The notes under the pieces are model-generated. The model was not told where the DNA came from, searched no databases, and saw nothing but the letters and a program-made list of their open reading frames with translations. This document shows, in pieces, positions 7,762-53,067 of a stretch of 64,000 nucleotides of DNA. The position numbers and the translations under genes were made by a program. The DNA lies in the NCBI RefSeq assembly GCF_900113945.1, contig NZ_FORG01000005.1, forward strand, positions 62,001 to 126,000, in the 5' to 3' direction. The DNA comes from Xenorhabdus mauleonii (lineage in GTDB: Bacteria > Pseudomonadota > Gammaproteobacteria > Enterobacterales > Enterobacteriaceae). The first letter of the stretch is position 1. Each line of letters opens with the position of its first letter.

Positions 7762-8241
7762 ATGGCAAATATTATTTATTTAACATTGAAAGGAGACAAA
7801 CAGGGGGTGATTTCACAAGGTTGCTCTTCTGTTGAGTCCATCGGTAATAAATATCAGGTTGGTCATGAAAATGAGATATTTGTATTGAATCTCCATCATT
7901 CTATTCACAGAGAGCAAAATGTTAACCATAGCCCAATTGTATTTATAAAGCCGCAAGATAAGTCGTCACCATTATTAATGATGGCAATTTCGGATAATGA
8001 AACATTGAATCTGAAATTTGATTTTTATCGTACAGCACAATCAGGGGCGCAGGAATTATATTATTCTATTGAATGCCGTGATGCGACAATCATTGAGCTA
8101 TCACCGAATTATCCACACAGCGCCAATCATTCGGAAGCGCAACCCGAAGAGAAAGTCTCTATTAAATATAAAGACATTATTTGCCATCATCATATGGCGG
8201 GAACATCTGGATACAGTGTTTGGGACGATAGGGTATATTAA
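7762..8241 (+). CDS. hcp: Hcp, type VI secretion tube protein (orphan)
   Basis: Hexameric ring protein that forms the T6SS inner tube and chaperones small effectors. The 159-residue product carries the family signatures MANIIYLTLKGDKQG, GNKYQVGHENEIFVLNL, PIVFIKPQDKSSPLL, LKFDFYRT and IAGTSGYSIW-like HMAGTSGYSVWDDRVY at the C-terminus; the length fits the Hcp1 family (about 160). AGGGAG lies about 7 nt before the ATG. No other T6SS gene (VgrG, TssBC, effector or immunity gene) is adjacent, and the gene is closed by its own terminator, so it is an orphan hcp that presumably serves a T6SS encoded elsewhere. Flanking repeat elements suggest insertion between dgoT and tauC. Confidence 0.92.
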   Translation: MANIIYLTLKGDKQGVISQGCSSVESIGNKYQVGHENEIFVLNLHHSIHREQNVNHSPIVFIKPQDKSSPLLMMAISDNETLNLKFDFYRTAQSGAQELYYSIECRDATIIELSPNYPHSANHSEAQPEEKVSIKYKDIICHHHMAGTSGYSVWDDRVY

Positions 8242-41988: not shown

Positions 41989-42007
41989 GTAAATAATTCT
42001 CATTATC
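41989..42007 (+). promoter_or_regulatory. Candidate Fur box upstream of chaN
   Basis: GTAAATAATTCTCATTATC matches 14 of 19 positions of the classical Fur box and lies about 40 nt before the chaN start, where a promoter is expected. Confidence 0.6.
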
Positions 42008-42046: not shown

Positions 42047-42964
42047 ATGAAAAAATTTACCTGCATAAAATCGACATTTTTAATGTGTTCTCTTTTGGCT
42101 GGCAGCTTTGTGCTTAATGGTTGTGCCGGCGCTCCCGATAACGCCAAAAACACTTCTCAGATAGTATTTCAAACCCTTCCTGCTGAATTAACCCAATCGG
42201 GTGCTGTCGTTGATCTGAAAACAGGGAAAGAAATTACCTCTAACGAGTTACTTGAGCGATTGACTGCTTATCCTCGCGTTGTTGTGGGGGAAAAACACGA
42301 TAACCCTTACCATCATCAGATAGAGCTATGGCTGGTGCAACAGCTAGAACAAAAACGCCCTCACGGTTCTGTATTACTGGAAATGATTAACCCAGATCAG
42401 CAAGAAAAAGTGAATAAAGTGAAAAGCTGGTTGCAGGGTAATCCGATCGTCAGGAGTGAGCGGATTCAACAGCTACTGGCTTGGCAACAAGGGTGGCCTT
42501 GGGAATGGTATGGTGATTTGACGATGGCGCTGATGAAAGCACCGTATCCATTGTTGGCTGCCAATATGGATCGCAGTGAAATCAATCAGGCTTATAAAGA
42601 TCACAAAACAGGGGATAAAACGTCACTAGTGCCTGATGATGTTAAAAAAATGATTGAGATAACCATTAAAAATTCTCATGGTGAAGATATAGAGAAACAG
42701 CATCTTTCTGCCATGACGAAGATCCAACAGATGCGTGACCGCCGCATGGCTGAACAACTCATCAAAGCACCGTCACCGGCTTTGCTATTTGCGGGTGGAT
42801 ATCATGCTGCTAAAGCCATGGGCGTACCTCAACATGTGAAGCAGATCGCACCAAACGAAAAAATCGCGGTATTGATGATCGCAGAACAAGGCGTCTCTTT
42901 GAACCATGAATATGCAGATTTTGTCTGGTTTACGCCCAAAGTGAGTGAAAAAGTAACCAAATAA
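42047..42964 (+). CDS. chaN: ChaN-family iron-regulated lipoprotein
   Basis: A 305-residue protein with a lipoprotein signal (lipobox LNGC, Cys near 26). The ChaN/haem-binding uptake domain is visible: YPRVVVGEKHDNPYHHQIELW (about 76-96), LLEMINPDQQ, WEWYGDLTMALMKAPYPLLAANMD and FAGGYHAAKAMGVPQH. Characterised ChaN-type lipoproteins bind haem, and several are iron-repressed. A Fur-like site precedes it and a TonB gene follows, so a role in haem or iron acquisition at the outer membrane is inferred. Confidence 0.85.
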   Translation: MKKFTCIKSTFLMCSLLAGSFVLNGCAGAPDNAKNTSQIVFQTLPAELTQSGAVVDLKTGKEITSNELLERLTAYPRVVVGEKHDNPYHHQIELWLVQQLEQKRPHGSVLLEMINPDQQEKVNKVKSWLQGNPIVRSERIQQLLAWQQGWPWEWYGDLTMALMKAPYPLLAANMDRSEINQAYKDHKTGDKTSLVPDDVKKMIEITIKNSHGEDIEKQHLSAMTKIQQMRDRRMAEQLIKAPSPALLFAGGYHAAKAMGVPQHVKQIAPNEKIAVLMIAEQGVSLNHEYADFVWFTPKVSEKVTK

Positions 42965-43023
42965 TATTAGTTATCACAAGGACGTGCATAAGCAATAAAT
43001 AAAAATAGTTTTCATTTATATAT

Positions 43024-43042
43024 ACAATTGATTATCATTCCT
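43024..43042 (+). promoter_or_regulatory. Candidate Fur box upstream of the TonB-like gene
   Basis: The core TGATTATCATT is identical to the centre of the Fur consensus; the flanks are degenerate. Located 35-50 nt before the probable tonB start. Confidence 0.6.
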
Positions 43043-43076
43043 ATCCATTTATTATTGACAAAATGTGCTACAAGAA

Positions 43077-43880
43077 ATGTTAACGTACACCACGTATCAA
43101 AATGTTCACACGGGTCACGTGACAAAATCCTTTCTCGCTGCGATCGCACTCCATGCCGTGATAGTTGGCTGGTTGGTTTACAAACCTGCGGATGTTGATA
43201 TTGAGGAATTTCTGCCTCCGCCTGCGGTTATGGTTGAACTGTCAATACAGACGGAAGCAATACATAAGATACAAAATCAACCCGTTGGTGTTGAGCAGAT
43301 ACTGTCTGTTACCAGCAAACAGCAGGAAAGTAAGGTTGATGAAGTTAACATGCCGAAATTGGATGTAAACGAGGATGCGCTTCTTTTGGTGAATAAGCAG
43401 AAGAAAATGCAGGAGGCGCGGGAAGTTCCCCAAAAAACACGACCTGTCGAGCGTGCAAAAGCAAAAGAACAAGAAAATGACAAGTCGCAAACTAATGCAG
43501 CACCGACGACCAGTAATGCAACAGCAAATAATGTGACTACCCGCACAGCGGCAGCTTATGAAAGTAACTCGGACACGATTGCCGATGCCAAGGCGGTATG
43601 GCAAGCCGAAGTTACCGGTCATTTGAATCGTTATAAAAAATACCCACAGGACGCGAAGAGAAGAAATCGAACAGGGCGTCCCGTAGTGCAATTTACCGTT
43701 AATCAACAGGGAATTGTGCTTGATAATAATTTGCTGCGGCCTTCCGGGACTAATTCACTCGATAGGGAAGCAAGGATGGTATTGGAAAGGGCACAGCCTT
43801 TACCTGCGCCTCCTGACATTATTTTAACGAATGGCAGGATTACAGTTGAACTGCCGATAGATTTTTATTTATCCCAATAA
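43077..43880 (+). CDS. TonB/HasB-like energy transducer
   Basis: About 267 residues. An N-terminal transmembrane anchor (AAIALHAVIVGWLVY, about 20-35) is followed by a Pro/Lys/Glu/Gln-rich periplasmic spacer with few prolines but many Asn/Thr/Ala (about 110-170), and then the TonB C-terminal domain (WQAEVTGHLNRYKKYPQDAKRR, GRPVVQFTVNQQG, SGTNSLDREARMVLERAQPLP). It carries proton-motive energy from ExbB-ExbD to a TonB-dependent receptor, here very likely the one at 46244. The start could also be GTG 43065; ribosome-binding sites are weak at both. Adjacent to the oligopeptidase gene by 18 nt, in an apparent operon. HasB-type rather than house-keeping TonB because of its position. Confidence 0.85.
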   Translation: MLTYTTYQNVHTGHVTKSFLAAIALHAVIVGWLVYKPADVDIEEFLPPPAVMVELSIQTEAIHKIQNQPVGVEQILSVTSKQQESKVDEVNMPKLDVNEDALLLVNKQKKMQEAREVPQKTRPVERAKAKEQENDKSQTNAAPTTSNATANNVTTRTAAAYESNSDTIADAKAVWQAEVTGHLNRYKKYPQDAKRRNRTGRPVVQFTVNQQGIVLDNNLLRPSGTNSLDREARMVLERAQPLPAPPDIILTNGRITVELPIDFYLSQ

Positions 43881-43898
43881 AAATACAGGATTGATGGC

Positions 43899-46121
43899 AT
43901 GTCTGAGGATAAAAAAGCGTTTTCGGCAAATATCAAAAAGCCAAATCAAAAAAATACCGTAAGCAGTAAAAGAATGATGCTTAGTTTTTTGCTGGGTGGT
44001 AGTTTGTTGAGTACAGGTCTATTAAGTACAAGTTTTGCCACTATCGCAATGGAGGAAAATATGGTTCCACCTACGGCCAAAAAGCAGCCGCATCAAATGG
44101 AAATGCACGGAGATTCCCGTGTCGATAATTATTACTGGCTGCGCGATGATAATCGTCAGGACGAAAATGTCATTAATTACCTGAAAGCTGAAAATCAGTA
44201 TACCGAGCAAATGCTTGAATCGGGTAAAGAACTGCGTGAAACCCTGTATAAAGAAATGACTGACAGAATGAATAAAGAAGATCAGTCCGTTCCTTATACC
44301 TATAATGGTTATGTTTATCGTACTGTTTATGAAGCAGGGAAAGACTTTCCTATCTACCAGCGGAAACCTGCCGATAATTCGACTGACTGGTTGGTTATGG
44401 TTGATGGCAATGAGCGGGCAAAGGACCATAAATTTTACCAGCTCGGCGGATTTGCCGTCTCATTGGATAACAAACGTATCGCGATAGCGGAAGATACGCA
44501 GGGGCGTCGTAATTTCCACGTTTCATTTAAAAATTTTGCTGACACTGATTGGCAGAATAATGTTATAGAAAACACTTCTGGCAACATTTTGTGGGCCAAC
44601 GATGGCAAGACCCTGTTTTATGTGCGCAGGGATCCACAAACTTTATTGCCTTATCAATTATTCCGCCATCAATATGGCACGGATACCAAACAAGATAAAA
44701 AAGTTTATCAAGAAAAAGATGAACGTTTCTATTTGTCGATCGCGGAAAGTACCTCGCTTGATTATATTTTAGTGTCTAGCACCAGTTATACCAGTGCAGA
44801 ATATCGACTGATTGATGCAAATAATCCGCAAGCGGAACCACAGATTTTCTCTGCCCGCCAAGCAGGGCGCGAATATGATCTCGATCATTTCCGTGGTCAA
44901 TTCTATATTCGTTCTAACCATGAAAGCCCATTGTTTGGTTTATATCGCACGGATGCAATTAATAAACCGTGGGAAACTGTGATTGCACCGCAGGAAAATA
45001 CTGATCTGGAAAACTTCGAGCTTTTCAATAATTGGCTGGTTGTACAAGAGCGAACGAAAGGGTTATCGTCAATTCGCCAGATTGACTGGAAAACTCAGCA
45101 AGAAAAACGCGTCCACTTTGATGATCCTGCATATATGGCGTCATTGAGCTATAACCCTGAGCCAGATACAAATTTACTGCGCTATAGCTATTCTTCCATG
45201 ACGACACCAAGTTCAGTATTCCAGTGGGATATGCAAACTGGTGAGCGTGAATTACTGAAGCAGCAGGAAGTTAAAGGATTCAACAAAGAAAACTATGAAA
45301 GCCAGCGCATGTGGGTAAAAGCCCGCGATGGGATGGAAGTTCCGGTTTCTCTGGTGTACCGCAAATCCTTATTTAAAAAAGGTGAGAACCCAATTCTGAT
45401 TTATGGTTACGGGGCTTATGGCATCAGTATGGATCCCTATTTTAGTTCAGCCCTTCTGAGCTTATTAGATCGCGGTTTCGTCTATGCATTAGTCCATGTT
45501 CGTGGCGGTGGGGATTTAGGCAAGAATTGGTATCTGCAAGGTAAAATCGAAAACAAAATGAACAGTTTTCACGATTTTATTGATGCAACCAAGAAACTGA
45601 TTGCCGATGGATATGGTGACAGCAAGCGTGTTTATGCGGAAGGTGGCAGCGCCGGCGGTTTATTAATGGGCACTGTCATTAACCAGGCTCCAGAATTATA
45701 CCGTGGCGTAATTGCAAAAGTGCCATTTGTGGATGCATTGACGACCATGCTTGATTCCTCCATTCCATTGACAACGGGGGAATATGAAGAGTGGGGCAAT
45801 CCAAATAACAAAGAAGATTATTACCGCATTAAATCTTATAGCCCTTATGACAATATTGAACATCAGCGTTATCCGCATTTGCTGGTTACGACAGGCTTGC
45901 ATGATTCTCAGGTTCAATATTGGGAACCCGCAAAATGGGTCGCAAAATTAAGAGAAATGAAACAAGGTAATAGTCTCTTATTATTGGAGACAAATATGGA
46001 TACCGGCCACGGCGGAAAACCAGGTCGTTTTAATCGTATTAATGACATTGCCTTTGATTATAGCTTTTTATTAATGCTGGATAATGCGAAAACATATTTC
46101 CCAGAATTAAAAGACGAATAA
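43899..46121 (+). CDS. Oligopeptidase B (S9A) with an N-terminal membrane or export segment
   Basis: Serine peptidase of the prolyl-oligopeptidase family that cleaves short peptides after basic residues. The 740-residue product is about 50 longer than cytoplasmic OpdB. The extra N-terminus is Lys-rich followed by a hydrophobic stretch (RMMLSFLLGGSLLSTGLLST, about 25-44) and an SFATIA region, so export to or anchoring in the periplasm is likely. Then comes the beta-propeller (HQMEMHGDSRVDNYYWLRDD) and the hydrolase domain: nucleophile Ser584 in AEGGSAGGLLMG, Asp in GLHDSQVQYWEP, His704 in DTGHGGKPGR. The position between tonB and a TonB-dependent receptor suggests it processes imported peptides or proteins. 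OpdB identity is firm; the localisation and role are inferred. Confidence 0.85.
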   Translation: MSEDKKAFSANIKKPNQKNTVSSKRMMLSFLLGGSLLSTGLLSTSFATIAMEENMVPPTAKKQPHQMEMHGDSRVDNYYWLRDDNRQDENVINYLKAENQYTEQMLESGKELRETLYKEMTDRMNKEDQSVPYTYNGYVYRTVYEAGKDFPIYQRKPADNSTDWLVMVDGNERAKDHKFYQLGGFAVSLDNKRIAIAEDTQGRRNFHVSFKNFADTDWQNNVIENTSGNILWANDGKTLFYVRRDPQTLLPYQLFRHQYGTDTKQDKKVYQEKDERFYLSIAESTSLDYILVSSTSYTSAEYRLIDANNPQAEPQIFSARQAGREYDLDHFRGQFYIRSNHESPLFGLYRTDAINKPWETVIAPQENTDLENFELFNNWLVVQERTKGLSSIRQIDWKTQQEKRVHFDDPAYMASLSYNPEPDTNLLRYSYSSMTTPSSVFQWDMQTGERELLKQQEVKGFNKENYESQRMWVKARDGMEVPVSLVYRKSLFKKGENPILIYGYGAYGISMDPYFSSALLSLLDRGFVYALVHVRGGGDLGKNWYLQGKIENKMNSFHDFIDATKKLIADGYGDSKRVYAEGGSAGGLLMGTVINQAPELYRGVIAKVPFVDALTTMLDSSIPLTTGEYEEWGNPNNKEDYYRIKSYSPYDNIEHQRYPHLLVTTGLHDSQVQYWEPAKWVAKLREMKQGNSLLLLETNMDTGHGGKPGRFNRINDIAFDYSFLLMLDNAKTYFPELKDE

Positions 46122-46138
46122 AAATTATTATTTAATAA

Positions 46139-46174
46139 TCCATAACACTAATAAGAAATTATCAGTGTTATGGA
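46139..46174 (+). terminator. Intercistronic hairpin between the oligopeptidase and receptor genes
   Basis: Perfect 11-bp stem TCCATAACACT/AGTGTTATGGA, extended by partial inner pairing. No T tract; may attenuate or stabilise the upstream mRNA end. Confidence 0.55.
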
Positions 46175-46243
46175 TGCTTTACACACAAATTTGCGAAGCA
46201 ATGTGAACAACAATAAATATTATATCTATTTAGGGTAAGGATA

Positions 46244-48511
46244 ATGAAAATTGTAGCTAGAATAGCTGGAGTCAGCGCTGTGCTGATGGGCCTCCAGGGA
46301 ATCGCTTATGCTGAAAATACGGACGACAATAAAAAAGAAAAAGTTGTGCGATTCAGCAGTCTGAAAGTTTCAGGTGCGCAAGATAATAAAAACTCTGCAC
46401 AGATAGAGGCAATGGAAAAACCAGGTTCTTATAGCTCTGTGGGTGAAGATAATAAATTAGAGTCTATGGATAGCGTATTGCGCAGCTTGCCGGGGACTTA
46501 TACTCAAATGGATGCCAGTCAAGGACAAGGAGTTGTCAGTGTTAATATTCGAGGCTTGAGTGGTTTTGGCCGAGTGAATATGATGGTTGATGGTATCAGC
46601 CAGAGTTTTTATGGTTCGGCAACGAGTGAGATTTCGCACGGGACACAGCCTTATAGCCAGTTTGGCGCATTAGTTGATCCAAATTTTATTGTTCGTGTTG
46701 ATATTGCTCGTGGTCAAGCTGATGATTCAGACTCTGTCAATGCTTTGGTTGGAAGCGCTAATTTCCGCACCATTGGCGTTGATGATGTAGTATTCGAAGG
46801 CAATAACCTAGGCGTTCGTACTAAATGGACATATGGCAATAATGGCATTGGCCGAAGTGGTATGATGGCGGTTGCAGGAAAAACGGAAGCATTCGGCCCA
46901 GAAGGTTCTTTGGGAGCTATCTTAGCTGTCAGTGGACATAATATTGAAGCCCACTATAGGAATGCTGAAGGTGTGAGTAGTGAAGAATTTGGTACAAGCG
47001 AAACGTTCAAACAAAAGCCAAATTCTCAACTAATGAAAATAAACATTAAACCCAATGATTTTCATGATTTGGAGTTAAGTAGCCGTTTATATCATAATAA
47101 ATTCAATAAGCGCCATATTGATAACTATGATTATTATTTAAAATATAACTACACCCCATTTACTGAACTGGTTGATGCTAAAATTATGCTAAGTACCAGT
47201 AATGGACGGCAAAAATACCTTCCTAGGACGATGGGTGTATTAGGGGAAAGTGAATCAAATGGAAAATCAAATTCTATTGATATAAAAAATACTAGTCGGT
47301 TCAATTATGAAGATACTGATTTTGCGTTCACGCTAGGTAGTAAGTGGATGCATACAGAGTATCGGAAAAGTATAGATGTAAGTACTGGTGATAAAATTAG
47401 AGATAAACAGATTGCAGAAAATAATATGTTTTCTCCAAGTGGTAAGCAAGATATTGCCAGCATTTATAGTAAACTGAAAATTGAACGTGATATTTACACC
47501 GCTGATTTAGGATTAAACTATCTGAATTACAGTGTGAGAGGGAAAAAACCAGCTTGTGAAGACCGAGTGGAGTGTTTTCCTCAGGGCGAGGCCCAGTTAA
47601 ATCTTAAAGAGCGTGGTTTCAATCCGAACATCTTATTGTCAGCAGAAATTATTCCTGAGTTTCAACCTTTTGTAAGCTATTCGCACTCAATGAGAGCTCC
47701 CAATGCTCAGGAAATTTTCACCACAATGGATGGTGGTGCTTCTATTAATCCATTCTTGAAAGGTGAAAAAGCGGATACTTATCAAATTGGTTTTAATAGT
47801 TATCGCCCGAACTTAATTGTGGATGGAGATACATTCCGTCTAAAAGCAGCATTCTTCCATACTAAAATTAAAAATTATATTAGTAGTGAACCGTATATGC
47901 TTTGTCTTGAAAGAAAGTTATGTATACTTGATGGAACATTAACGGATGAAGAAAATGCAACACTTAATGAAAATGTTGCTGGCTCTCTTCACACCAATAG
48001 CTTGACACCGGTAACTATGAAAGGTTATGAAATCTCTGCTAATTATGATGCAGGTATGTTTTATAGTTCACTAGCATATAGCCAGCAAAAAACACAGCAA
48101 CCAACATCAATAACAACATCCATGTTCGGCGGAAGCCCAGCATCCCAATTACCAGAAAGTTATTTAACATTGGATACAGGTATTCGCTTTTTAGATGAAA
48201 AAATTAGATTAGGGGCTATTGTAAAATATACAGGAAAATCTTATCACATGAACCCTGCCGGTGATACGGATGAGAACAATAGAGTAAAAATGGATGAATC
48301 AGACAAAGTGCCTACGATTATTGATTTGTATAGTGACTACCAAATCAATAAAAACGTATTTCTAAAATTTGCAATACAAAATTTGACTAATCGAAATTAT
48401 TCTGAAGCACTGAATCGAATGAATTCAACACCTCTCATGCAAGAGCAAGAATCTAAAACCCAAACAGCCCGCGGTAGAACCTACATTATGGGCGCTGAGA
48501 TTCGTTTCTAA
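46244..48511 (+). CDS. TonB-dependent outer-membrane receptor, haem/haemoglobin-receptor-like
   Basis: A 755-residue receptor with a signal peptide (cleavage after AYA at about 24), a plug domain (MDSVLRSLPGTYTQMD, VSVNIRGLSGFGRVNMMVDG, about 65-180) and a 22-strand barrel ending in a terminal Phe (YIMGAEIRF). The FRAP/NPNL-like region of haem receptors appears as YSHSMRAPNAQEIF and INPFLKGEKADTYQIGF. Two extracellular loops carry Cys pairs (PACEDRVECF near 440 and MLCLERKLCIL near 555). It lies directly after tonB and opdB and close to chaN. The ligand may be haem, a haem protein or a peptide; haem is the conservative guess. Confidence 0.82.
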   Translation: MKIVARIAGVSAVLMGLQGIAYAENTDDNKKEKVVRFSSLKVSGAQDNKNSAQIEAMEKPGSYSSVGEDNKLESMDSVLRSLPGTYTQMDASQGQGVVSVNIRGLSGFGRVNMMVDGISQSFYGSATSEISHGTQPYSQFGALVDPNFIVRVDIARGQADDSDSVNALVGSANFRTIGVDDVVFEGNNLGVRTKWTYGNNGIGRSGMMAVAGKTEAFGPEGSLGAILAVSGHNIEAHYRNAEGVSSEEFGTSETFKQKPNSQLMKINIKPNDFHDLELSSRLYHNKFNKRHIDNYDYYLKYNYTPFTELVDAKIMLSTSNGRQKYLPRTMGVLGESESNGKSNSIDIKNTSRFNYEDTDFAFTLGSKWMHTEYRKSIDVSTGDKIRDKQIAENNMFSPSGKQDIASIYSKLKIERDIYTADLGLNYLNYSVRGKKPACEDRVECFPQGEAQLNLKERGFNPNILLSAEIIPEFQPFVSYSHSMRAPNAQEIFTTMDGGASINPFLKGEKADTYQIGFNSYRPNLIVDGDTFRLKAAFFHTKIKNYISSEPYMLCLERKLCILDGTLTDEENATLNENVAGSLHTNSLTPVTMKGYEISANYDAGMFYSSLAYSQQKTQQPTSITTSMFGGSPASQLPESYLTLDTGIRFLDEKIRLGAIVKYTGKSYHMNPAGDTDENNRVKMDESDKVPTIIDLYSDYQINKNVFLKFAIQNLTNRNYSEALNRMNSTPLMQEQESKTQTARGRTYIMGAEIRF

Positions 48512-48535
48512 TAGGATTTAAAAAATATCAAAATT

Positions 48536-48571
48536 ATTAACCACTTCAGGCGATATTCTGAAGTGGTTAAT
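48536..48571. terminator. Hairpin after the receptor gene (shared with the convergent peptide gene)
   Basis: Perfect 14-bp stem ATTAACCACTTCAG/CTGAAGTGGTTAAT with an 8-nt loop, located between the receptor (plus) and the first small peptide gene (minus). Confidence 0.75.
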
Positions 48572-48618
48572 AATGTGTATTGTAGCCTTGATAATAATAT
48601 CCATTATCACAAAACTAA

Positions 48619-48825
48619 CTAAAGTAACCCAATAATGCCTAAGACAGCCCCATCTATAAGTACTTTTATTAAAAGGCTTGTCTCGGAGTCAATAATATTA
48701 ATTTCGAATAAAATATCAACAAGGCTATTTAGTATGCCTCCTATACCATTAATACACTTTGTGATTTCATTCTTTAATGACACGCTAATAATAAAACTTT
48801 CCATCGGTTCATCTAGTTCTTTCAT
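48619..48825 (-). CDS. Small hydrophobic peptide A (68 aa, unknown)
   Basis: Unrecognised 68-residue product. It has an acidic, Ser-containing N-terminus (MKELDEPMESF) and then a long amphipathic-hydrophobic part: CINGIGGILNSLVDILFEIN (about 24-43) and LLIKVLIDGAVLGIIGLL at the very end. ACGGAG lies 5 nt upstream of the ATG. The pattern (I..I..GI/L, then DIL, then a hydrophobic C-terminal helix) recurs in the next two minus-strand genes. No signal peptide. It is convergent to the receptor gene. A plus-strand frame over the same bases has no ribosome-binding site. Confidence 0.6.
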   Translation of the reverse strand: MKELDEPMESFIISVSLKNEITKCINGIGGILNSLVDILFEINIIDSETSLLIKVLIDGAVLGIIGLL

Positions 48826-49012
48826 GATTACTCCGTTACTGAAAGTGACGTTATTGTTTCTTTTTACTACTGCATTTATGTCTCTTGGTTATATAATTTA
48901 TAGATTGGTGTATATATTAGAAGGCCATATATAGTGGTGTTATCTATTGTTATAATTATAACGATGGGGAAAATAATTAATATATAATTTAATCCTGTTA
49001 TATTCAGTTTTT

Positions 49013-49234
49013 TTATTTTTTAAGTATAAATGCGGAAATAAGTGTTAACAATCCTTCAAGAATCGATTTTATACCATGAGATATAAGCATTTTTTGATAC
49101 TTACTAATTGTTCGTTTATTAACTAATATATCTAAAGTAGCGTTAAGAATTATTGATACGCCATTACTAATATTCTCGATACAATCATAAACATCAAGCT
49201 GTTGAACTTCTTGCATATTTGTTGTTTTTTCCAT
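49013..49234 (-). CDS. Small hydrophobic peptide B (73 aa, unknown)
   Basis: Unrecognised 73-residue product with a polar N-terminus (MEKTTNMQEVQQLDVYD), CIENISNGVSIILNATLDIL (about 18-37), a basic turn (VNKRTISKYQK) and a hydrophobic end (ILEGLLTLISAFILKK). The leader TGAGGGAATTATG is identical to that of peptide C, which points to duplication including the translation signal. One Cys aligns with the Cys of peptide A. Confidence 0.65.
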   Translation of the reverse strand: MEKTTNMQEVQQLDVYDCIENISNGVSIILNATLDILVNKRTISKYQKMLISHGIKSILEGLLTLISAFILKK

Positions 49235-49346
49235 AATTCCCTCATTACATAATAAAATATATAATTTTAATAACCATAATATGGTTATAAATTCAAAACT
49301 ATATAATTGTTTTTTACATGATAATAATGCATTAATATGATGAAGT

Positions 49347-49383
49347 TCTATATTCCCCCCCCCATATGGAAGGGGAATATAGA
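49347..49383 (-). terminator. Hairpin between peptide genes C and B, containing a C9 tract
   Basis: 12-bp stem TCTATATTCCCC/GGGGAATATAGA. The left arm runs into nine consecutive C (49355-49363), a length at which replication slippage or sequencing error is possible. Probable transcript end of peptide gene C, 20 nt after its stop. Confidence 0.65.
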
Positions 49384-49403
49384 GTTAACTTATTTTATTG
49401 ATA

Positions 49404-49649
49404 TTATGGATTTTCCTGTTTTTGTTGTTCTAACACCTTTATAGCAGCTTCTTTTAGCGCATCAGTGATGGAAATTCCTAGTTTTGCTTTAGATTGAATA
49501 CTTTCATTTCCGGGGTTTTTTGCACTCCAAATACCAAGGCCACCGTCAATAATCAAATCTAAACCACTGACAATATCTTCAATACTTTTCCAAAAGCCAT
49601 CATTTTTTGCTAGGTTATCAGTATCTGAAGCAGTTGCTAATTGTGTCAT
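49404..49649 (-). CDS. Small peptide C (81 aa, unknown)
   Basis: Unrecognised 81-residue product: MTQLATASDTDNLAKNDGFW, then IEDIVSGLDLIIDGGLGIW (about 23-41), SAKNPGNESIQSK, and an amphipathic helix ending AIKVLEQQKQENP. It shows the same spacing as peptides A and B (I-D/N-I--G----I----G/D-I/L) but is less hydrophobic and lacks Cys. It has the TGAGGGAATTATG leader shared with peptide B. The Gly-Gly in the middle does not sit in a normal double-glycine leader. Could be a bacteriocin-like, immunity or surface peptide; nothing in sequence decides. Confidence 0.65.
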   Translation of the reverse strand: MTQLATASDTDNLAKNDGFWKSIEDIVSGLDLIIDGGLGIWSAKNPGNESIQSKAKLGISITDALKEAAIKVLEQQKQENP

Positions 49650-50439
49650 AATTCCCTCACATATTTATGTTGTGTGTAATGTTTGTTGCTAATCAATAGC
49701 TATATAAAAAATATAATGTAGGTGAAATTATTTTTTCTATAGAAACCAAAAAAGTTAATTAATGAGTATTTCATCCAATATCAATGAGTATTATTTTAGT
49801 CGTTAAATACAAATAAACATTGTTCGGAAAAATAATATCTATAGAATAATTTCGCTTACAAACTAAGTATAGGATAAAGATTTCATCTATCAAGTAATGG
49901 AATAAAAAAATACAAAAAAGAGTAATTATTTAACCTAACTTTTTTATTTTTAACTAAATAAAATCTTCTGTGGAGATGATTGGAAACAAGATTTCCTCTG
50001 TTAATAATTCCACTTTAAGTTAAATGATTAATTTTTTATTCTAATGACGTATAAGAATTGAATCGAGGATTAATTTAAGAAAAAATCATCCGTGCTTTGT
50101 GCGGCCAATACAATTTTTCTGGATATTTAAATAGAGATTTAACGCACTAAAAAATAATGTAAAAAAGCAAATCCAGAAGAATGTGAGAAGCCTCTCAAAA
50201 TCAGCGCTAATAGTGCAGTGCTGGGATAAATTAAACCTCCCTCTATAAAAGGAAATTTTTACCGCGACATGATTCTACTAGCGTTGGTCAAAGATTGGAG
50301 AATAAAGCCAATTAGCGGGCACTGTTCACACAATGAAAAAATTTATTTATGAGTAAAATAGCGCTTGTCATTAGAATAACTTACTTTATTAAGATAATGG
50401 CAATGTTAATTTCGGCTACCTATTCAGGATATTACGCTC
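49650..50439. other. AT-rich region between the peptide genes and the DUF1266 gene
   Basis: About 790 bases without a convincing reading frame. It must hold the promoter for peptide gene C (TATATAAAA-like sequence near 49700) and that for the DUF1266 gene. A 7-bp inverted repeat around 49972-49998 is the only structure I noticed. Confidence 0.4.
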
Positions 50440-51642
50440 ATGTCAGATAAGTTAATAAATACATGGATTGAGTTTCATAACGCAACAGATCAAGACCAAA
50501 AAACGCAGCTCTTTATTGAATTTTTTAATCTATTCCACTCATCCGATTTTTGGCTTGCCACTGCCGTTGCAGACAACAGCGATGACTACACCTTTTCGAT
50601 AAAGGAAGATCCTGAATTCCATTTCAGGCCGTATATCATTGCTTATCTCTCTGAAGAAAATCCTGCATCATGGCACCACGCTGAATCTACCGACAATAAT
50701 CCTGAAAATTTCCATCAGTTCCGTGCTGAACATTTGTACTATCTTGTTGACGAATTCCAATGCGACCTTGTGATTTATAACGGGCATAATTATGTGATTT
50801 TCGATCAAAACACACTGACAAATATAAAAAATTCAGCACAAGGTGAAAACGAAACCTATCTCCCTGATAACTCCCAGCCTTTTACTCCTTCTGATTGGGG
50901 GATGATATTAGGCGCACCTTACTCCTGTTTTAATGGATGGAGTTGCAATGATTATTCTCAAGAAGAAGATGATGGAGGTTTAGCATCCGCCTGGGGTATT
51001 GAAAATCGCGATGATCTGGTTTACCAGCTATTTACTCTGCTGGTGAGGGGACATGCTGTCGATTATTACAGGATGCGGGATGAGCTGAGCGAATTATCAA
51101 AACCAGAATTTGATGAAATGCTGGCAGGTATTCAGAAAAGTGATATGAATGAATCTGATAAACAAGAAACTATTTGGCGTTATACCATGATGTATAACAA
51201 TGAAAATGATATTCAGGACATTCAATATGTAGCGTGGGATTATGTTCGTTTCAGCATGTTGTGTCTGAATGGCTGTAAACTGCAATATATCTCAGAGCAG
51301 GAAGCGAAAAATTGGGCACTTATGCTCGCCCCGTTGCTACGGATGGTTTACAGCGGCTGGGATAACCTCTGGTATCACTTTGCGCTTACACGCTGGTTTT
51401 GGGCATCAACGGATGGGGATTGGGCTGAGTGTCAGTCTGAATATGTCAATATTATCCGTGCGTTGCTGAATGACGAAAATAGCCCAACCAATGTTATCGA
51501 TTGGAATAGCGATTTGCCTCCCACCGAAACCCATTCATTTGCCCAAGCGCTAACTGAAGTGTTGGCAAAACAAAATCCCGACATTGATTTTAATGAAGTG
51601 CATGAAGCCATTAGAGAACAAGTCAGGGCTGATGAATTATAA
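50440..51642 (+). CDS. DUF1266-domain protein with an SseB-like N-terminus
   Basis: Cytoplasmic, acidic, 400 residues. The C-terminal half has the DUF1266 pattern known from E. coli YbeU/YbeR: SAWGIENRDDLVYQLFTLLVRGHAVDYY (key W-G-I and G-H; about 181-210) and AWDYVRFSMLCLNGCKLQYI, then MLAPLLRMVYSGWDNLWYHF. The N-terminal 130 residues (FWLATAV, FRPYIIAYLS, CDLVIYNGHNYVIF) look like the SseB fold. Function is unknown; some DUF1266 genes sit near polymorphic toxins or Hcp-type effectors as possible immunity or accessory proteins. Monocistronic, ending at a strong terminator. Confidence 0.7.
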   Translation: MSDKLINTWIEFHNATDQDQKTQLFIEFFNLFHSSDFWLATAVADNSDDYTFSIKEDPEFHFRPYIIAYLSEENPASWHHAESTDNNPENFHQFRAEHLYYLVDEFQCDLVIYNGHNYVIFDQNTLTNIKNSAQGENETYLPDNSQPFTPSDWGMILGAPYSCFNGWSCNDYSQEEDDGGLASAWGIENRDDLVYQLFTLLVRGHAVDYYRMRDELSELSKPEFDEMLAGIQKSDMNESDKQETIWRYTMMYNNENDIQDIQYVAWDYVRFSMLCLNGCKLQYISEQEAKNWALMLAPLLRMVYSGWDNLWYHFALTRWFWASTDGDWAECQSEYVNIIRALLNDENSPTNVIDWNSDLPPTETHSFAQALTEVLAKQNPDIDFNEVHEAIREQVRADEL

Positions 51643-51702: not shown

Positions 51703-53067
51703 TTAATTAGATTTTTTCTTGCGGGTTTTCTTTACTTGAGTGACTTGACTCTCAACCCAGCCATCCTGCAACCGAGTTTTCAGCGTATCCCCAACTTTCA
51801 CCTGCTTAACTTGCTTTAACAATGTTCCATCAGGCGCTTCGCCGATACTGTAACCGCGACTTAACGTTGCCAACGGGCTGACCGCCTCCATTCGTGAACA
51901 GGAAACCGCAAATTTTTCCCGATAACGCCCCAATTGCCGCTCAATCGCTTGTTTCAATCGAAAATCAAGTTGTTGGATGGATTGATCGTAATGGCGGATT
52001 TTTCGCTCCGGATGCGTTTGCAATAGGCGCAGGCTAATTCTTTCATGTGAATTTGCATGCTGTTTTAGGCTGCGTGAAAAAGCATCAATCAACTTTTGGC
52101 GCAATTCAGCCAAATGATTTTGCTGGCGCGCCAACTGCAAATCAGGGCGTTGTTGTCGGAGCCTATGCTGCAATACATTGAATACACGTTGTTTCTGGGC
52201 GAAGAAGTAATCCATCGCCATTTCGAACCGCTGTTGCAGAGACTGCACCTGCCTCAATAATTCGATTTGATTGCGGCTAACCAGTTCTGCCGCCGCAGAA
52301 GGCGTTGGCGCGCGTAAGTCAGCGACAAAATCTGCGATTGTCACGTCTGTTTCATGACCGACAGCACTGACAACAGGAATACGGCTCTGGAATAATGCCC
52401 GTGCAACCTGTTCGTCATTGAAACACCATAAGTCTTCAAGTGATCCTCCTCCACGTCCGACAATCAGGACATCACACTCTTGCCGCGCGTTTGCCAGTTC
52501 AATTGCCCGAATAATCTGCAATGGAGCTTCGGCACCCTGAACAGCGGTAGGGTAAATGATAATGGGCAGGGAAGGATCACGACGTTTCAAAATATTGAGA
52601 ATATCGTGCAGTGCCGCACCACTGGCCGAAGTGATAACACCAAGACGTTTGGCGGGCGAGGGCAGTGGTTTTTTATGAAATTGATCAAACAAACCTTCAG
52701 CTGCGAGTTTTTGTTTCAACACTTCAAATTGTTGTTGTAATAACCCATCACCGGCAGGTTGAATGCTTTCCACGATTAATTGATAGTCGCCCCGAGGCTC
52801 ATACAGGGTAATTTGTGCCCGAACCAATACCTGTTGCCCATTTTGCGGTCGAAATGTTGCCTTTAGGTTTTGACCACGGAACATGGCGGCACGAATTTGT
52901 GCTCGTTCATCTTTTAACGTGAAGTACCAATGTCCTGATGATGGCTGAGAAAAATTGGACATTTCGGCAGAAAGCCAAATCCTGCCCATTTCCAGCTCCA
53001 ATAGCTGGCGAACCGTCTGATTAAGGCGGCTAACAGAAAAAATTCCGGTATTGGTAGGTAGTGACAT
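51703..53067 (-). CDS. xseA: Exodeoxyribonuclease VII large subunit
   Basis: Catalytic subunit of the single-strand exonuclease ExoVII. The 454-residue product matches the family length (about 456). It has an N-terminal OB fold ([22 protein letters not shown]), the catalytic domain ([65 protein letters not shown]), a long coiled coil (about 275-400), and a conserved end ([13 protein letters not shown]). Divergent from guaB, as in E. coli. Confidence 0.96.

What the first reader, a model, noticed from the sequence alone, without database searches (positions are those of the whole stretch)
42047..49649. TonB / oligopeptidase B / TonB-dependent receptor locus with three convergent small peptide genes
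Seen: chaN-like lipoprotein, tonB, opdB and a receptor lie together on the plus strand with two Fur-like sites; three small ORFs (68, 73 and 81 aa) lie immediately convergent. Known: TonB receptors sit beside their dedicated TonB and ligand-handling genes. Inferred: the peptides could be receptor ligands, haem carriers, bacteriocin-like products or immunity peptides, and the exported OpdB could process them. I know of no described system with this set.
Basis: partly seen in the sequence, partly recalled or inferred. Interest (0 to 1): 0.75.

Follow-up and report, generated by a model that had tools for sequence, protein, structure and literature searches.

The report
Leaderless microcin relatives beside TonB receptor
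An insect-associated Xenorhabdus bacterium carries, beside an ordinary iron-uptake receptor operon, three small fast-changing proteins that resemble secreted peptide toxins (microcins) without their export signal, so they are more likely protection proteins than receptor ligands.

Summary

chaN-tonB-opdB-receptor is a conserved operon of the cjrABC kind: all four genes lie in this order in 69 of 80 receptor loci. E. coli/Shigella CjrB and CjrC let colicins Js and Z in (PMC6668396).

The peptides are a separate insert between receptor and xseA. Of 24 Xenorhabdus genomes where this gap could be classed, 13 are empty (59-120 bp), 7 hold related peptide arrays and 4 hold other cargo.

New finding: the gap peptides resemble the mature part of a Xenorhabdus family of double-glycine-leader microcin-like peptides; eight of nine of those lie beside a C39-peptidase exporter. 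Mature-only profiles find each other (hhalign E 2.4e-7); 15 column permutations do not. None of 20 gap peptides has the leader, and the window's genome has no such exporter domain. Of the window's own peptides, peptide 1 is clearly in the family with the window left out (E 7e-7); peptides 2 and 3 only weakly (E 0.22, 0.086).

Best reading: leaderless microcin relatives acting as orphan immunity proteins in a competition hotspot. Function is inferred; no microcin locus was found to carry a leaderless copy, which counts against it.

The parts
41989..42007 (+). Fur-like site before chaN (15/19 to consensus)
   Evidence: 15-16/19 before chaN in 9 of 9 relatives tested
42047..42964 (+). chaN-like lipoprotein gene (CjrA type)
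   Evidence: PF04187 E 1e-36; chaN found in 78 of 80 receptor loci
43077..43880 (+). tonB paralogue (CjrB type)
   Evidence: tonB found in 79 of 80 receptor loci
43899..46121 (+). opdB-like S9 peptidase with an N-terminal extension, probably exported (inference, no signal predictor run)
   Evidence: opdB found in 71 of 80 receptor loci
46244..48511 (+). TonB-dependent receptor (CjrC type, haem/haemoglobin family)
   Evidence: 46% identity over nearly the full length to E. coli plasmid receptors, one of which is preceded by ChaN-family and TonB genes and followed by senB
48533..48574 (.). terminator-like hairpin (17-bp stem) between receptor and peptide 1; core AACCACT..AGTGGTT also between peptide cassettes of relatives
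48619..48825 (-). peptide 1, 68 aa, leaderless microcin relative
   Evidence: E 7.3e-7 with a family profile that leaves the window out; E 0.12 with the mature-microcin profile
49013..49234 (-). peptide 2, 73 aa, probable member of the same family
   Evidence: weak alone: E 0.22 with the window left out; E 2.5 with the mature-microcin profile; supported by place, size, orientation and ribosome site
49347..49383 (.). hairpin between peptides 3 and 2
49404..49649 (-). peptide 3, 81 aa, probable member of the same family
   Evidence: weak alone: E 0.086 with the window left out; not listed at E<=5 with the mature-microcin profile; shares the upstream element; AlphaFold model: helices 7-15, 17-44, 49-79, mean pLDDT 76.7
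49650..49680 (-). upstream element of peptide 3 (ACACAACAT..GTGAGG), similar to that of about half of the gap peptides
   Evidence: read by eye
50440..51642 (+). DUF1266 gene, further content of the same gap
   Evidence: PF06889 E 2.4e-24; 91% identical fragment (residues 160-400) in the gap of X. szentirmaii
51703..53067 (-). xseA, the far border of the gap

Best explanation
The locus is two things. First, a conserved, probably Fur-controlled iron/haem uptake operon of the cjrABC kind with an extra opdB-like peptidase. Second, between its receptor and xseA, an insertion hotspot seen in Xenorhabdus that here holds three separate cassettes for small helical proteins. As a family these proteins share descent with the mature part of Xenorhabdus double-glycine-leader microcin-like peptides but lack the leader and cleavage site. 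Most likely they stay in the cell, in or at the inner membrane, and neutralise incoming microcins of that family, for example by forming mixed complexes or occupying the target: an orphan-immunity array. Shown: gene positions, conservation, homology at family level, no leader, no exporter domain in this genome, fast but constrained evolution in relatives. Inferred: membership of peptides 2 and 3 (weak by sequence alone), the immunity function, the site of action, and that the neighbouring receptor is the microcins' way in.
For: A profile of gap peptides reached leader peptides beside C39 exporters in three genomes. Mature-only profiles: with the microcin-only model (leader cut) the first ten matches after the eight microcins themselves are all gap peptides, among 54,356 ORFs, best E 3.9e-4; the gap-only model has a microcin (E 2.7e-5) as its first match after the intact gap peptides. 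hhalign probability 93.5, E 2.4e-7; ranks of the 8 microcins, intact gap peptides set aside, 1, 4, 5, 7, 33, 46, 62, 221, against a best rank of 291 in 15 column permutations and 217 reversed. Leaving out each genome in turn, 18 of 20 gap peptides are found at E<=1e-4; the two exceptions are window peptides 2 and 3. Leader pattern: 0 of 20 gap peptides, 7 of 7 microcins tested. Of 33 matches in 30 genomes, 22 are leaderless at the gap and 9 are leader forms elsewhere (read). The nine genomes with leader forms are exactly the nine with an exporter at least 81% identical to the query; the next is 57%. The window's genome has no C39 domain match at E<=1e-5, all 3 candidates scored, nor has G016: the peptides are orphans there. 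Gap peptides have a more hydrophobic peak than mature microcins (median 1.47 v 0.91, p 0.0013). The same gap holds Hcp and WapI-like immunity genes in X. indica. E. coli/Shigella CjrB and CjrC admit colicins Js and Z (PMC6668396, passages).
Against: In the 8 leader-peptide/exporter loci the gap profile finds no leaderless family member below E 0.08, although class II immunity genes are normally adjacent (PMC10233263, passages). Gap peptides and leader peptides co-occur in 3 genomes (G003, G005, G128), close to the 2.1 expected by chance for 7 and 9 carriers of 30. With the window left out, peptides 2 and 3 score only E 0.22 and 0.086 among 54,356 ORFs; with the mature-microcin model peptides 1 and 2 score E 0.12 and 2.5, and peptide 3 is not listed. 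Known class II immunity proteins show little or no similarity to one another (PMC9746304, passages), and descent from the toxin would be unusual. Peak hydropathy of peptides 2 and 3 is 1.47 and 1.10, not clearly membrane-like. The structure model has no PDB match below E 0.47. Toxicity of the microcin-like peptides is untested.
Confidence: 0.45

Rival explanations
1. The gap peptides are themselves bacteriocins of the leaderless type, made without a cleaved leader and released by another exporter or by lysis, and possibly taken up through the receptor beside them.
For: They resemble the mature part of exported microcin-like peptides, form arrays of 2-6 and change quickly.
Against: No exporter gene was seen in the ORF lists of the seven gaps with peptides; the window's genome has no C39 domain match; a toxin active when made would need its own protection. 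Other kinds of exporter elsewhere in the genome were not searched for.
Confidence: 0.2
2. They are decaying remnants of microcin genes carried along in a hotspot, with no present function.
For: The gap holds repeated xseA and receptor fragments in X. innexi; one X. innexi copy has an internal stop, one X. beddingii copy is short, and one leaderless fragment lies alone in G134. Window peptides 2 and 3 have drifted far from the family.
Against: 20 of 22 gap copies are open over their length, and five presumed orthologue pairs in relatives show dN/dS 0.20-0.78 (one paralogue pair 0.84); about half share an upstream element.
Confidence: 0.14
3. They serve the receptor: ligands, haem carriers or OpdB substrates.
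For: They lie beside the receptor (or, in G016, its split remains) in all seven gap arrays.
Against: 13 of 24 classed Xenorhabdus genomes have an empty gap; no clear peptide match in the non-Xenorhabdus receptor loci (best E 0.14); no good Fur site at the peptides; no export leader seen; peptides remain in G016, where the receptor is split by an inserted transposase-like ORF.
Confidence: 0.05
4. They act on something other than microcins, for instance phage or another intracellular target, and the likeness to microcins reflects an old shared helical module.
For: The hotspot holds mixed content; no immunity function is shown.
Against: No PADLOC match and no PHROGs match below E 0.07; no phage record matches peptide 3, the only one searched; the sequence likeness is specific in the permutation control.
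Confidence: 0.16

Closest known systems
cjrABC(-senB) operon of E. coli/Shigella plasmids
   Same: ChaN-type lipoprotein, own TonB and haem-type receptor in the same order; Fur-like site in front; receptor 46% identical over nearly its full length.
   Different: Here on a 309-kb contig beside housekeeping genes, with an opdB-like peptidase between tonB and receptor and no senB; colicin uptake untested.
Class II microcin systems (precursor, immunity protein, C39 exporter, membrane fusion protein)
   Same: Eight Xenorhabdus loci have a GG/GA-leader peptide beside a C39 exporter; family models were run on three exporters and two HlyD-type adaptors. The gap peptides resemble the mature part.
   Different: The window peptides have no leader, no exporter in the genome and no leader form in the genome.
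Class II microcin immunity proteins (Cvi type, name recalled)
   Same: Small (68-81 aa; known range 51-216, PMC10233263), mostly helical in the one model made; peptide 1 has a membrane-like stretch.
   Different: Not beside a precursor gene; related in sequence to the toxins; protection untested.
Leaderless bacteriocin enterocin DD14 (PMC7332713, abstract and outline only)
   Same: Precedent that an intracellular bacteriocin peptide takes part in self-immunity.
   Different: Gram-positive, itself the toxin, with its own gene cluster and exporter.

Membership tests
cjrABC-type operon | ChaN-like gene, tonB and receptor gene in this order on one strand | tested here: met
   69 of 80 loci have chaN-tonB-opdB-receptor in order
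cjrABC-type operon | Fur site in front and iron repression | tested here: inconclusive
   Site present, and in 9 of 9 relatives; regulation not measured
cjrABC-type operon | Entry route for colicins Js and Z | not testable with these tools
   Known for E. coli/Shigella CjrBC (PMC6668396, passages)
Class II microcin precursor | N-terminal leader ending in GG or GA | tested here: not met
   0 of 20 gap peptides, 7 of 7 microcins tested; so the window peptides are not filed as precursors
Class II microcin precursor | C39-peptidase exporter in the genome | tested here: not met
   No match in the window's genome to the whole exporter at E<=1e-100 (38 of 74 candidates scored) or to its C39 domain at E<=1e-5 (3 of 3 scored)
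Class II microcin precursor | Mature part homologous to other members | tested here: inconclusive
   Met for the gap family as a whole and for peptide 1 through that family; weak for peptides 2 and 3 alone
Class II microcin immunity protein | Gene next to the precursor gene | tested here: not met
   No leader form in the window's genome; no leaderless match below E 0.08 in the 8 microcin loci. Not filed as a member, only as working like one
Class II microcin immunity protein | Small, with membrane helices | tested here: inconclusive
   68-81 aa; peak 19-residue hydropathy 2.19, 1.47, 1.10; no membrane predictor run
Class II microcin immunity protein | Protects against the cognate microcin | not testable with these tools
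   needs an experiment
Leaderless bacteriocin | Dedicated exporter and protection genes in the cluster | tested here: not met
   None among the ORFs between 48511 and 51703
Secreted haem carrier or receptor ligand | Export signal and shared iron control with the receptor | tested here: inconclusive
   Best Fur-like match 12/19 within 200 bp upstream; no signal evident by eye, no predictor run

The most novel reading that the evidence does not exclude
A receptor-side immunity bank: bacteria have turned copies of an attacker's microcin into leader-stripped, cell-retained antagonists and store them as swappable cassettes beside the gene of the TonB receptor through which the microcin enters. Immunity would then be descended from the toxin itself, and one spot would hold both routes to resistance: loss of the receptor (broken, truncated or not found in 8 of 30 genomes, one of these only by a single stop codon) or gain of antagonists.
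Probability: 0.2. Interest if true: 0.8.

Novelty: new variant of a known kind. Interest (0 to 1): 0.54.

Why it matters
Class II microcin immunity proteins cannot at present be recognised by sequence (PMC9746304, PMC10233263, passages). If immunity here derives from the toxin, cognate pairs could be predicted by homology and the origin of immunity becomes testable. It also brings to light a microcin-like family in Xenorhabdus for which my limited paper searches found no description, and it ties a cjrABC-type receptor, a documented bacteriocin gateway in E. coli/Shigella, to a hotspot of competition genes.

Tried and rejected
Single-peptide searches of 21 genomes each found little beyond the query's own genome: best others E 0.024, 0.139 and 0.038. 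Profile search of solved structures (best E 0.025) and Foldseek with the model (best E 0.47) gave nothing meaningful. Pfam, NCBIfam, PADLOC and PHROGs gave no match below E 0.07 for the three peptides. The gap profile in 99 genomes of the family, 98 genera with only two Xenorhabdus among them, gave no match outside the genus below E 0.005. The leader-peptide profile in 394 genomes of the order gave 5 genomes with matches at E<=1e-4, none beyond position 47 of 74 and all starting at the leader; so the mature family was not seen outside Xenorhabdus in these samples, except in G137, whose contig corresponds to a record titled as an Enterobacteriaceae MAG. No plasmid record matched one microcin. 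In one search my guaB query was out of frame (corrected); it served only as a position mark. In one search one coordinate pair was wrong and hit the receptor; repeated correctly. A link between carrying gap peptides and carrying leader forms was checked and not supported (3 observed, 2.1 expected). A leave-one-genome-out test was made late; it showed that peptides 2 and 3 are weak members, and I lowered the best explanation from 0.48 to 0.45 and raised the remnant rival from 0.12 to 0.14 and the other-target rival from 0.15 to 0.16.

Papers: searches for cjrC/cjrB, Xenorhabdus with microcin (20 of 32 listed), class II microcin mining (15 of 304), leaderless/self-immunity (15 of 81), orphan immunity (5 of 5), Xenorhabdus with leader terms (12 of 147) and bacteriocin-derived immunity (4 listed of 5). 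In the listings I saw no title or abstract describing this family or toxin-derived class II immunity; papers not listed were not seen, and most subscription journals are not held. I read passages of PMC6668396, PMC9746304, PMC11494933, PMC7412671 and PMC10233263, and abstract plus outline of PMC7332713. PMC9746304 and PMC11494933 have no occurrence of the word Xenorhabdus.
Full report
WHAT IS THERE. The window's genus is taken to be Xenorhabdus: contigs of its genus-mates have the same lengths as named contigs (for example G003 = X. stockiae 166,549, G005 = X. innexi 33,479, G128 = X. beddingii 70,902, G010 = X. indica 227,409, G001 = X. szentirmaii 2,145,942).

THE OPERON IS A KNOWN KIND. The receptor has relatives on E. 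coli plasmids at 46% over nearly its full length. The one E. coli record I opened shows ChaN-family lipoprotein, energy transducer TonB, TonB-dependent receptor and senB in a row, the cjrABC-senB layout. In a Serratia proteamaculans record the annotated order is ChaN, TonB, S9 peptidase, receptor, with maeB upstream and no peptide gene annotated. A scan of genome contigs found 125 relatives and kept 80. In these 80, chaN was found in 78, tonB in 79, opdB in 71, and all four in order on one strand in 69 (some loci are cut by contig ends). Colicin Z, and earlier colicin Js, enter through CjrC and CjrB (PMC6668396, passages). The E. coli operon is described as a proposed iron uptake system with a functional Fur box (PMC7412671, passages). 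Here a Fur-like site stands before chaN in the window and in 9 of 9 relatives tested.

THE PEPTIDES ARE A SEPARATE INSERT. In 31 non-Xenorhabdus loci where xseA was found after the receptor, 29 gaps are 50-211 bp; the two of about 1.1 kb, both Providencia, hold an ORF of 322-336 aa. Of 30 Xenorhabdus genomes, 24 receptor-xseA gaps could be classed. Thirteen are 59-120 bp (G002, G004, G009, G011, G012, G017, G018, G129-G133, G135), seven have peptide arrays (G000, G003, G005, G015, G016, G128, G136), and four have other content (G001; G008; G010; G014, where the full xseA lies elsewhere). Six were not classed: G134 and G137 (contig ends), G006 (receptor cut to 65 residues by a long insert), and G007, G013, G138 (no receptor found). 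The receptor is full length without stops in 22 of 30, broken or truncated in 5 (G006, G012, G016, G017; G135 by one stop) and not found in 3. Other gap content includes Hcp and WapI-like immunity genes in X. indica, a DUF1266 fragment in X. szentirmaii, and repeated xseA-end and receptor-end fragments with six peptides in X. innexi. Transposase-like ORFs in G014 and G016 were named by eye. Hairpins with the core AACCACT..AGTGGTT recur between cassettes, and about half of the peptides share an upstream element (by eye), so each peptide looks like its own small unit.

WHAT THE PEPTIDES ARE. Alone, each window peptide finds almost nothing. Sixteen gap peptides were aligned (A1). Searched in 30 genus genomes, this profile also reached leader-bearing peptides in three genomes (G014, G128, G010), a leaderless fragment in G134, and three weak matches at E 0.06-0.1 that I discount. 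The leader-bearing ones end their leader in GG or GA and stand beside a C39-peptidase exporter. Twenty further exporter loci were fetched, and five of these brought more such peptides: eight leader-peptide/exporter loci in all. A ninth leader peptide (G137) has no exporter in its 3.2-kb locus. Four of the eight loci have a second leader peptide (L129, L164, L165, and a different one in L167). Among 30 genomes, the nine with a leader form are exactly the nine with an exporter at least 81% identical to the query exporter; the next best is 57%.

IS THE HOMOLOGY REAL. The leaders could have misled, so I cut them. With a mature-only microcin model, the first ten matches after the microcins themselves are all gap peptides among 54,356 ORFs (best E 3.9e-4), and of 16 such matches at E<=5, 14 are gap peptides, one is the G134 fragment and one is unrelated. 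With a gap-only mature model a microcin comes first after the intact gap peptides (E 2.7e-5), but the other microcins score only E 0.024 or worse. Column permutation destroyed this: real ranks of the eight microcins 1, 4, 5, 7, 33, 46, 62, 221; best rank in 15 permutations 291, reversed 217; hhalign probability 93.5, E 2.4e-7. Limits: the ORF set comes from loci I had fetched, and four of the eight microcins rank 33 or lower.

HOW SURE ARE THE WINDOW'S OWN PEPTIDES. Their scores (gap model) and 53 come from profiles that include them. With the window left out, peptide 1 scores E 7.3e-7, peptide 3 E 0.086 and peptide 2 E 0.22 among 54,356 ORFs (per-ORF chances of about 2e-6 and 4e-6 for the last two, my division). 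All 17 gap peptides of the other six genomes score E<=1e-4 when their own genome is left out. Peptides 2 and 3 are therefore members chiefly by place, size, orientation, ribosome site and, for peptide 3, upstream element.

LEADER LOST, EXPORTER ABSENT. None of 20 gap peptides has a leader by the pattern that all 7 microcins tested meet. Several keep the first residues of a leader (MKELT, MNELT, MSELN against MKELN/T), which suggests descent from leader-bearing forms. The window's genome and G016 have no match to the exporter's C39 domain at E<=1e-5, all candidates scored; G015 and G136 have only 43-47% relatives. The combined profile gave 33 matches in 30 genomes: 22 leaderless at the gap (one with an internal stop, one short), 9 leader forms elsewhere, 1 leaderless fragment elsewhere, and 1 weak match (E 0.049) that I discount.

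SELECTION AND SHAPE. Five presumed orthologue pairs of gap peptides in relatives have dN/dS 0.20-0.78 and one paralogue pair 0.84, against 0.04-0.16 for neighbours (synonymous sites partly saturated). The AlphaFold model of peptide 3 is mainly a long helical hairpin, mean pLDDT 76.7, pTM 0.46, with no close solved relative. Gap peptides have a more hydrophobic peak window than mature microcins (p 0.0013; full-length against trimmed, and related sequences are not independent).

MECHANISM. Most likely the peptides stay inside and block incoming microcins of the family. Rivals are leaderless bacteriocins, remnants, and other intracellular roles. Against immunity: in the eight microcin loci the gap profile finds no leaderless copy below E 0.08, where immunity genes normally are (PMC10233263), and the genomes that carry the two forms overlap only as chance predicts (3 against 2.1). 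Orphan immunity against microcins of others fits this better than self-immunity. Enterocin DD14 is a precedent for an intracellular bacteriocin taking part in immunity (PMC7332713, abstract). That the microcins enter through the neighbouring receptor rests only on position and on the colicin precedent.

VERDICT. Operon: known kind. Peptides: new variant, leaderless relatives of a microcin-like family for which I found no description, placed in a competition hotspot. Function inferred.

Noticed in passing
L126, L128, L129, L163, L164, L165, L167, L168: Eight Xenorhabdus loci with GG/GA-leader microcin-like peptides beside C39 exporters; four have a second leader peptide, three of these (L129, L164, L165) ending in VCDN. 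No immunity gene was evident in the small-ORF lists I looked at.
   Followed up: partly
L170, L171, L172, L174, L175: Other exporter loci carry further leader-like small ORFs of different families.
   Followed up: no
G-handles: The cjrC-type receptor is broken, truncated or not found in 8 of 30 Xenorhabdus genomes, as might be expected of a receptor exploited by bacteriocins or phages.
   Followed up: partly
L040:2222-8584: X. innexi gap with repeated xseA-end and receptor-end fragments, as if cassettes arrived with pieces of both flanking genes; also five ORFs of 99-146 aa without a Pfam match above its cut-off.
   Followed up: partly
L042:5235-6725: X. indica gap: Hcp gene, an unclassified ORF and a WapI-like immunity gene; a masked stretch nearby was left alone.
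   Followed up: partly
7762-8241: Hcp (T6SS) gene in the window (PF05638).
   Followed up: no
43899-46121: opdB-like peptidase with an N-terminal extension, found inside the receptor operon in many genera; its role in uptake or in peptide defence is unknown.
   Followed up: no
48590-48608: Best Fur-like match of the window (16/19) lies between two convergent 3' ends, perhaps by chance.
   Followed up: partly
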